Shown here in pieces: positions 28,785-29,347 of a DNA stretch of 64,000 nucleotides. The position numbers were made by a program, and so were the translations under genes. Under the pieces are notes generated by a model, which saw only the letters and a list, made by a program, of their open reading frames with translations, had not been told where the DNA came from and did no database searches. The first letter of the stretch is position 1, and each line of letters begins with the position of its first letter. Source of the DNA: Prevotella sp. GTDB taxonomy: Bacteria; Bacteroidota; Bacteroidia; Bacteroidales; Bacteroidaceae. The stretch lies in contig SUYI01000002.1 in the NCBI GenBank assembly GCA_015060485.1, positions 124,001 through 188,000 of the forward strand, read 5' to 3'.

Positions 28785-29347
28785 GAAGATTATTGGTATT
28801 GACATTTCTCATCTCTCATTTCTCATTGCTCATTTGCGAAGCTCAGGAGACGCATTACCACAAGGGCCTGCGTTCGCAAGCAGAGAATGATAAATACGGA
28901 GGTGTGGCCGCAGAACCGCATTTCGACGGAGGAGGCTATTACTGGACCCGTGTGCGCAATGTGGACGACGTCGCCATTACCCACGAAACAGCGGCCGATT
29001 CGCTGGCCCGTCGTGAAGACTTCAAGCGGTTGTGCCAGTTGGCCTACGACGCTTACGAGGCAGGTGATGCGGTGAAAACCATTACCTATGGCGATAGTGC
29101 CTTACAGAAACGCTATCATACTGCCGACCTCTACTTCTTCATGGCCGTATCGTTCGAGAAGTTAGGTAGTTACGACGAAGCCGACCGGGCTTACCGTAAG
29201 GCCCTCGGATCGGGCTATCCTGGAGCCTTGAACGTCTACAACGACTTCAAGGTGCGCCAGCAACAGCGCAAAGCCGCCGACAAACAACGCAAGAAAGAAG
29301 AAAAGCGCAAGGCAAAGGAAGAAAAAAAGAGGCTCAAGGAAAGTTGA
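28781..29347 (+). CDS. Secreted TPR-like protein with lysine-rich tail
   Basis: Signal peptide; helical repeat ADLYFFMAVSFEKLGSYDEADRAYRKAL. Confidence 0.6.
   Translation: MRRLLVLTFLISHFSLLICEAQETHYHKGLRSQAENDKYGGVAAEPHFDGGGYYWTRVRNVDDVAITHETAADSLARREDFKRLCQLAYDAYEAGDAVKTITYGDSALQKRYHTADLYFFMAVSFEKLGSYDEADRAYRKALGSGYPGALNVYNDFKVRQQQRKAADKQRKKEEKRKAKEEKKRLKES
28805..28832 (+). repeat. Heptamer array (TTTCTCA x4) encoding a signal-peptide core
   Basis: tttctca tctctca tttctca ttgctca -> FLISHFSLLI. Confidence 0.85.

What the first reader, a model, noticed from the sequence alone, without database searches (positions are those of the whole stretch)
28805..28832. Signal peptide core built from a TTTCTCA heptamer array
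Four heptamers (28 nt) encode FLISHFSLLI, the hydrophobic core of the 28781 protein's signal peptide (MRRLLVLTFLISHFSLLICEAQ). A 7-nt repeat cycles through all three frames, and TTTCTCA reads FLISHFS, which is hydrophobic. Two further secreted proteins in the window (36623, 59903) show the same construction, suggesting a DNA repeat repeatedly exapted as export signals.
Basis: seen in the sequence. Interest (0 to 1): 0.9.

Follow-up and report, generated by a model that had tools for sequence, protein, structure and literature searches.

The report
Repeat DNA encodes signal peptide cores
In a rumen Prevotella-type bacterium, short 7-letter DNA repeats have repeatedly become the greasy core of the 'export tags' of secreted proteins, with sister species using different 7-letter repeats at the same spot; the repeat class was known, but its recurrent use as export signals appears not to have been described.

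Summary
Window 28803-28834 is a degenerate TTTCTCA array coding the hydrophobic core of the 28781 protein's signal peptide (SP). 59903 (TTTCTCA) and 36623 (T-rich TTTTTTA) are built the same way. In 1.98 Mb of the same genome, period-7 arrays occur at 0.57/kb in SP codons, 0.04/kb in internal hydrophobic segments and 0.06/kb in other coding sequence, about the intergenic rate of 0.64/kb. SP arrays are always stop-free in the sense strand and mostly uncharged and hydrophobic; mid-gene arrays are hydrophilic. At one orthologous SP site (GH106 family, 77 DNA sequences) the core is a heptamer or octamer array in 9 (12 counting arrays just downstream), with six different units scattered over the tree; gene-body windows show 14 of 2772. 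GH95 and a TPR protein likewise carry different heptamers in sister species. So export signals were re-made from repeat DNA many times. Most arrays are intergenic or in linkers, so SP use is a by-product of a lineage-specific array process, filtered by how the array reads. Phase switching, as in Neisseria opa, is not supported. How arrays arise, and whether SP arrays are favoured or merely tolerated, stays open.

The parts
28781..29347 (+). 188-aa secreted protein (weak TPR match); its ATG overlaps the stop codon of the upstream gene (ATGA)
   Evidence: ORF; Pfam; 113 homologs
28781..28846 (+). signal peptide MRRLLVLTFLISHFSLLICEAQ (predicted)
   Evidence: sequence; most homologs long enough to cover the N-terminus have an ordinary SP ending ..AQE(S/T)HYH at the same place
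28803..28834 (+). TTTCTCA heptamer array coding TFLISHFSLLI, the SP h-region
36647..36675 (+). TTTTTTA-type heptamer array coding FLFFIFCF, the SP core of the GH95 enzyme at 36623-39022
   Evidence: G007 ortholog (86% identical) has a different array, TTTATCA, at the same site
59919..59950 (+). TTTCTCA heptamer array coding FSFLIFHFSF, the SP core of the GH106 enzyme at 59903-62965
   Evidence: orthologs
27462..28784 (+). upstream secreted esterase-like gene with an ordinary SP here (MRKSLLIAFMALSSVAMAQ); its G035 ortholog has a TCTCACC-array SP (LLLTSHLSPLAS)
15817..15844 (+). TCTCTCA array coding a hydrophilic SHLSSLTSH linker within a two-part protein (MetH-type C-terminal part); not an SP
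13204..13239 (+). AAACCTC array coding KPQTSNLKPQTS inside an enzyme gene; not an SP
551..579 (+). AATTAAG array coding EIKNEELRIK inside the PurL-like gene; not an SP
60395..60429 (+). AAACTTC array coding KHQTSKFKLQTS, a second and hydrophilic array in the same GH106 gene

Best explanation
This Prevotella-type genome carries several hundred short arrays of 7-nt (sometimes 8-nt) units, most of them containing TGA on one strand. Because 7 is not a multiple of 3, an array read from its stop-free strand gives the same 7-residue cycle in every frame, and T-rich units give uncharged hydrophobic cycles (FLISHFS, FFILHSS, LITYHLS, VYCLLFI). Where such an array lands at or grows in the 5' end of a secreted-protein gene it can directly serve as the signal-peptide core, so it is kept; hydrophilic readings survive only in linkers, and the stop-bearing strand only outside genes. 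The 28781, 36623 and 59903 signal peptides are three products of this. Shown: the arrays, their enrichment in SPs, the sorting by reading, and repeated independent replacement at orthologous SP sites. Inferred: that the array-coded peptides are export-competent (homology and anatomy only), and that arrays are born by slippage, template switching or recombination with dispersed copies.
For: Period-7 arrays 107 vs 0 in shuffles. Density per kb: SP 0.572, internal hydrophobic 0.040, non-SP first 25 codons 0.100, other coding 0.062, intergenic 0.643; SP vs internal hydrophobic P=4e-6, and 16 SPs vs 0.6 expected under synonymous recoding, with no excess at lags 4-6 and little or none at 9-13. Replicated in G035 (3 SP arrays in 5.3 kb; 0 in 11.3 kb internal hydrophobic) and, with 1 SP array, G007. 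SP arrays 17/17 stop-free in sense; hydropathy of reading 1.21 vs -0.36 for mid-gene arrays, P=1e-6. Array-SP proteins belong mostly to secreted or envelope families: GH2, GH43, GH97, GH106, pectinesterase, OEP, BatD, M15, MACPF. GH106 SP site: 12/77 with arrays vs 14/2772 body windows, P=5e-13, or 9/77 counting h-regions only, P=3e-9; 11 changes of array state on the tree, and a 98%-supported trio at about 0.06 changes per site holds TTTTTTA, no array and TTTCTCA. GH95: TTTTTTA vs TTTATCA. TPR protein: CAACTGT vs TTTCTCA; in 6 of 37 ortholog pairs an array is present in one and absent or different in the other. 28781 family: only the three nearest homologs (89-99%) have the array. Protein-level check: N-terminal 9-mers decodable from a perfect heptamer array 24/6990 vs 10/127661 in bodies.
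Against: SP density only equals the intergenic density, so tolerance alone could explain much of it. SPs were called by a simple rule (no SignalP), genes by a home-made caller; one of 18 listed SP arrays (C14:27443) looks like a promoter array misread as an SP, and 36623 itself was missed by the rule. No export has been measured. Near-identical non-array SPs in distant GH106 clades (MKRLTTLALVLCLAILSRG) suggest recombination or transfer also moves SPs, so some array 'gains' may be swaps.
Confidence: 0.8

Rival explanations
1. Pure tolerance. Arrays arise everywhere by mutation and persist wherever harmless; the SP core is simply the most permissive coding site, and no selection ever favoured an array-coded SP.
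For: SP density (0.572/kb) equals intergenic density (0.643/kb); linker arrays show tolerance elsewhere; SP length stays ordinary.
Against: If arrays entered SPs at the intergenic rate in random orientation and only hydrophobic stop-free ones survived (about 22%), 4.2 are expected and 13 seen, P=4e-4. This rests on assumptions about the intergenic rate and on the SP caller.
Confidence: 0.4
2. Phase-variable contingency locus, as in Neisseria opa: slippage of 7-nt units in the SP switches the secreted protein on and off.
For: Same anatomy as opa CTCTT coding repeats in the leader peptide (PMC3960869; PMC3899988); unit length not a multiple of 3; targets are surface or secreted proteins.
Against: Units in the window arrays are degenerate; close homologs (89-99%) keep the same SP length with only substitutions, as do L188 and L239; most arrays lie outside SPs. 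No population data were available.
Confidence: 0.08
3. Spread by recombination: one SP or repeat cassette is copied among secreted genes, rather than arrays arising anew at each.
For: At least five genes, several of unrelated families, share GCAGCATTCTTCATTCTTCATT (one mismatch allowed) coding (A/V)AFFILHSSFF; near-identical ordinary SPs occur in distant GH106 clades.
Against: Different units at the same orthologous site in close sisters and unit variation within arrays; flanks of the TTTCTCA SP arrays are unrelated to each other.
Confidence: 0.25
4. The arrays act at RNA or DNA level (arms of dispersed palindromic elements, start-site hairpins) and their coding of the SP is incidental.
For: Inverted heptamer pairs within 400 nt: 14 vs 3.1 expected, max 9 in 200 permutations; several straddle start codons with stems of z -3 to -8; element core AATTTGCTNCCGC abuts arrays.
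Against: The three window SPs show no unusual fold (z -0.13, 0.02, 0.34) and no array partner at the start; SP arrays are sorted by hydrophobic reading.
Confidence: 0.1
5. Chance or composition: T-rich hydrophobic codons mimic a repeat.
For: 36623 is T-rich and its score is reached by chance recoding in 0.4%.
Against: Synonymous null 16 vs 0.6; internal hydrophobic segments 2 per 49 kb; most other lags at or near zero.
Confidence: 0.02

Closest known systems
Neisseria opa CTCTT coding repeats in the leader peptide (PMC3960869, PMC5354566, PMC3899988)
   Same: A short tandem DNA repeat, unit length not a multiple of 3, codes part of a signal peptide of a surface protein
   Different: opa: one gene family, one hypermutable pentamer, switches expression. 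Here: many unrelated secreted families, many different and often degenerate heptamers, stable SP length in close homologs, no evidence of switching
Heptameric simple sequence repeats of bacteria: Xanthomonas GGGAATC, Nostoc GGGGATT (PMC4692102), Beggiatoaceae TAACTGA (PMC4679880)
   Same: Period-7 arrays as an over-represented repeat class, mostly intergenic, patchy between species; TAACTGA also contains TGA
   Different: Those reports follow one unit per lineage and discuss regulatory or G-quadruplex roles; here there are dozens of units per genome, sorted by protein reading, and used as SP cores
Tandem repeats creating disordered protein regions in Borg elements (PMC9879509)
   Same: Rapidly arising DNA repeats add protein sequence
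   Different: Seen as title and abstract only: repeats there create disordered regions; here they make a hydrophobic targeting signal

Membership tests
opa-type phase-variable coding repeat in a signal peptide | tandem repeat of non-3n unit inside SP codons | tested here: met
opa-type phase-variable coding repeat in a signal peptide | near-perfect units able to slip at high rate | tested here: not met
   window arrays degenerate (2 of 4 units exact at 28805-28832); some other SP arrays (CATTCTT) are perfect
opa-type phase-variable coding repeat in a signal peptide | copy-number variation between close relatives giving on/off frames | tested here: inconclusive
   closest homologs keep the same SP length; only proteins of cluster representatives were visible
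bacterial heptameric SSR class | genome-wide excess of period 7 over other periods | tested here: met
bacterial heptameric SSR class | mostly intergenic | tested here: met
   152 of 283 arrays intergenic, 10 times the coding density
Sec signal peptide | positive n-region, uncharged hydrophobic core, small-residue cleavage site | tested here: met
   MRR-LLVLTFLISHFSLLI-CEA/Q by rule and by alignment with homologs
Sec signal peptide | drives export | not testable with these tools
   needs reporter fusion or proteomics

The most novel reading that the evidence does not exclude
A lineage-specific heptamer-array process acts as a standing generator of export signals: secreted proteins in these bacteria repeatedly discard an inherited signal-peptide core and replace it with whatever hydrophobic heptamer array is at hand, fast enough that sister species differ at the same site, with dispersed palindromic array elements as one source.
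Probability: 0.5. Interest if true: 0.8.

Novelty: new variant of a known kind. Interest (0 to 1): 0.66.

Why it matters
It would be a natural case in which functional protein-targeting sequence comes repeatedly from repeat DNA rather than by descent. It turns the question of how signal peptides arise and change so fast into a countable process: array birth, frame-independent reading, hydrophobicity filter. It would also warn that SPs in such genomes are poor orthology markers and can be re-made within closely related species.

Tried and rejected
Chance or composition: rejected by shuffles, synonymous recoding and the internal hydrophobic control. A general N-terminal effect: rejected, non-SP N-termini have 5.5-fold fewer arrays. 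Start-site hairpin as the role of the three window arrays: no fold signal. Known RNA family: no Rfam match in the window. Consistent strand orientation of intergenic arrays towards neighbouring genes: none, 31 vs 32. The 28781 family gave little phylogenetic depth in the held genomes (3 of 60), so GH106 was used instead. Literature searches found no report of period-7 repeats as SP cores, but subscription papers are largely not held.

Full report
OBSERVATION. The stated bases are there: 28805-28832 is TTTCTCA TCTCTCA TTTCTCA TTGCTCA, and TRF independently reports 28803-28835, period 7. It lies in ORF 28781-29347, whose product starts MRRLLVLTFLISHFSLLICEAQ. The start codon overlaps the stop of the preceding gene (ATGA). 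The same construction is at 59919-59950 in the GH106 enzyme (MKRLVYFSFLIFHFSFSVSAA) and, with a T-rich TTTTTTA unit, at 36647-36675 in the GH95 enzyme ([24 protein letters not shown]). Keeping the peptide and redrawing codons from SP usage, the lag-7 score is reached in 2, 9 and 82 of 20000 trials (28781, 59903, 36623). This is conservative because the peptides themselves are read from the repeat.

GENOME-WIDE SETTING. The window is contig C9:124001-188000 of a 3.94-Mb, 88-contig genome; the nearest named homologs and loci are Prevotella sp. and Prevotellaceae, many from rumen metagenomes. In the first 832 kb sampled, period-7 arrays number 107 against 0 in shuffled sequence; period 8 gives 24, period 9 gives 16, and 14 and 21 are multiples. 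TTTCTCATTTCTCATTT (up to 2 mismatches) occurs 183 times against 12 for the reversed pattern. The longer pattern is patchy in the genus: present in 79 of 200 genomes, from 0 to about 170 hits each. Units are diverse but not random: TGA is in 86 of 113 intergenic units against 34 expected from their letters, and TAG is almost absent.

THE REFUTATION TEST. On 1.98 Mb (1443 genes called here, 500 with a rule-based SP) arrays per kb are: intergenic 0.643, SP 0.572, last 25 codons 0.121, first 25 codons of non-SP genes 0.100, other coding 0.062, internal hydrophobic segments of 15 aa or more 0.040. SP vs internal hydrophobic: odds ratio 14, P=4e-6. Under synonymous recoding, 16 SPs pass the lag-7 threshold vs 0.6 expected; lag 8 gives 10 vs 0.1; lag 9 gives 3 vs 1.4, and lags 4-6 and 10-13 give none. 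Removing one probable false SP (C14:27443, an array in a promoter) leaves P=9e-6. The excess recurs in G035 (3 arrays in 5.3 kb SP, 0 in 11.3 kb internal hydrophobic) and weakly in G007. The rule-based SP caller is conservative: it misses 36623 and others visible by eye.

SORTING BY READING. All 17 SP arrays are stop-free in the sense strand and 13 read as uncharged hydrophobic cycles (FLISHFS, FFILHSS, VYCLLFI and others). Mid-gene arrays read SHLSPLT, KPQTSNL, EELRIKN (mean hydropathy 1.21 vs -0.36, P=1e-6). Three SP arrays instead build an extended n-region, in part with the start codon (MFKVQSSKFKIQS...). If arrays entered SPs at the intergenic rate in random orientation and only hydrophobic stop-free readings survived, about 4.2 would be expected and 13 are seen (P=4e-4): a hint of more than tolerance, not proof. 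The host proteins are mostly secreted or envelope families (GH2, GH43, GH97, GH106, pectinesterase, outer-membrane efflux protein, BatD, M15 and M3 peptidases, MACPF).

COMPARISON WITH RELATIVES. This is the strongest evidence. In the GH106 family the SP can be located by homology (just before PWTFWYW), without the gene caller. Of 77 DNA sequences from 80 fetched loci, 12 carry a period-7 or period-8 array between start codon and mature domain (9 in the core: TTTTTTA, TTTTTCA twice, TTTCTCA twice, TTWTGCA, TTATTTA, TTTTTACC twice), against 14 of 2772 body windows of the same genes. On the family tree array state changes 11 times. One 98%-supported trio at about 0.06 changes per site holds TTTTTTA, no array and the window's TTTCTCA. 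In GH95 the 86%-identical G007 ortholog has TTTATCA where the window has TTTTTTA, with PARAQ after it in both. Among 37 ortholog pairs with SPs in both, six involve an array and in none do both have the same one; a TPR protein has CAACTGT in one species and TTTCTCA in the other, and the window's own upstream gene (27462) has a TCTCACC-array SP in G035. For 28781, only the three nearest homologs (89-99% identical) share the array; the others mostly show ordinary SPs such as MKKLILTTLLFIGTGIAYA/QESHYH. SP length changes little (22 vs 20 residues up to and including Q), so the array replaced a core rather than adding to it.

MECHANISM. A 7-nt array is frame-independent for the protein: any entry point gives the same cycle. 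One strand usually carries TGA and is closed; the other is open and, if T-rich, hydrophobic and uncharged. That makes the open strand a ready-made h-region. Arrays are made by a lineage-specific process, mainly visible between genes (median 6 nt from the upstream stop and 18 nt from the downstream start in co-directional pairs). Slippage is the usual proposal for heptamers (PMC4679880 and PMC4692102, reporting Mrazek and colleagues). A recombination or cassette route is suggested by GCAGCATTCTTCATTCTTCATT shared by SPs of different proteins, and by inverted array pairs (14 vs 3.1 expected) and a dispersed element with core AATTTGCTNCCGC next to arrays (49 hits vs 0 controls). The birth step is inferred, not shown. 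Export by array-coded SPs is inferred from anatomy and homology.

WHAT IT IS NOT. It is not a proven contingency locus: the anatomy matches Neisseria opa, but window units are degenerate and close homologs differ by substitutions only. It is not a hairpin device at the three window genes (z -0.13 for 28781, 0.34 for 36623, 0.02 for 59903), though some other SP genes do have inverted arrays of up to about 30 bp around the start.

NOVELTY. Heptamer arrays in bacteria and short repeats in a signal peptide are each known. Recurrent replacement of SP cores by many different heptamer arrays across secreted families was not found in the held literature. I call it a new variant of a known kind.

Noticed in passing
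window 24606-24695 and 55439-55481; also G000:C2:37800, C61:93342 and others: Dispersed element: GTGAANA or TGAAGAA array followed by AATTTGCTNCCGC, sometimes as a full palindrome (24606-24695). 49 hits vs 0 reversed controls in this genome, also in several relatives; no Rfam match in the window.
   Followed up: partly
window 55454-55500: The called start of the SufD-like ORF lies inside a heptamer array plus element core (MKSEEFASAHDM...); the true start may be the downstream ATG, or the element supplied a new N-terminus.
   Followed up: no
window 14643-17510, array 15817-15844: A 955-aa ORF with an unassigned first 400 aa and a MetH-type C-terminal part; a heptamer array sits at the junction, as if an array had fused two genes or serves as linker.
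   Followed up: no
own genome, 1.98 Mb sample: Most heptamer units contain TGA (or TAA) on one strand even in intergenic arrays (TGA 86 of 113 vs 34 expected), and TAG is nearly absent; unexplained.
   Followed up: partly
G000 C72:72539-72703, C2:37697-37828, C26:135612-135810, C72:275486-275626: Inverted heptamer pairs straddle the start region of secreted genes, stems up to about 30 bp (z -3 to -8); some start codons lie in or near the upstream arm. Possible translation control.
   Followed up: partly
G000 C8:9432-11468, C26:58424-59506, C80:34791-36938: Start codon and extended n-region (MFKVQSSKFKVQS...) supplied by AAAGTTC arrays upstream of ordinary hydrophobic cores.
   Followed up: partly
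L235, L248; G000_969: Octamer arrays (TTTTTACC, reading FYLFTFLPL) also serve as SP cores; period 8 is strongly enriched in SPs besides 7 and 14.
   Followed up: partly
window 48498-48580, 31173-31247, 62439-62503: Longer tandem repeats: a perfect 23-bp unit x3.6 between genes, and 22-bp partly palindromic units x3 inside coding sequence.
   Followed up: no
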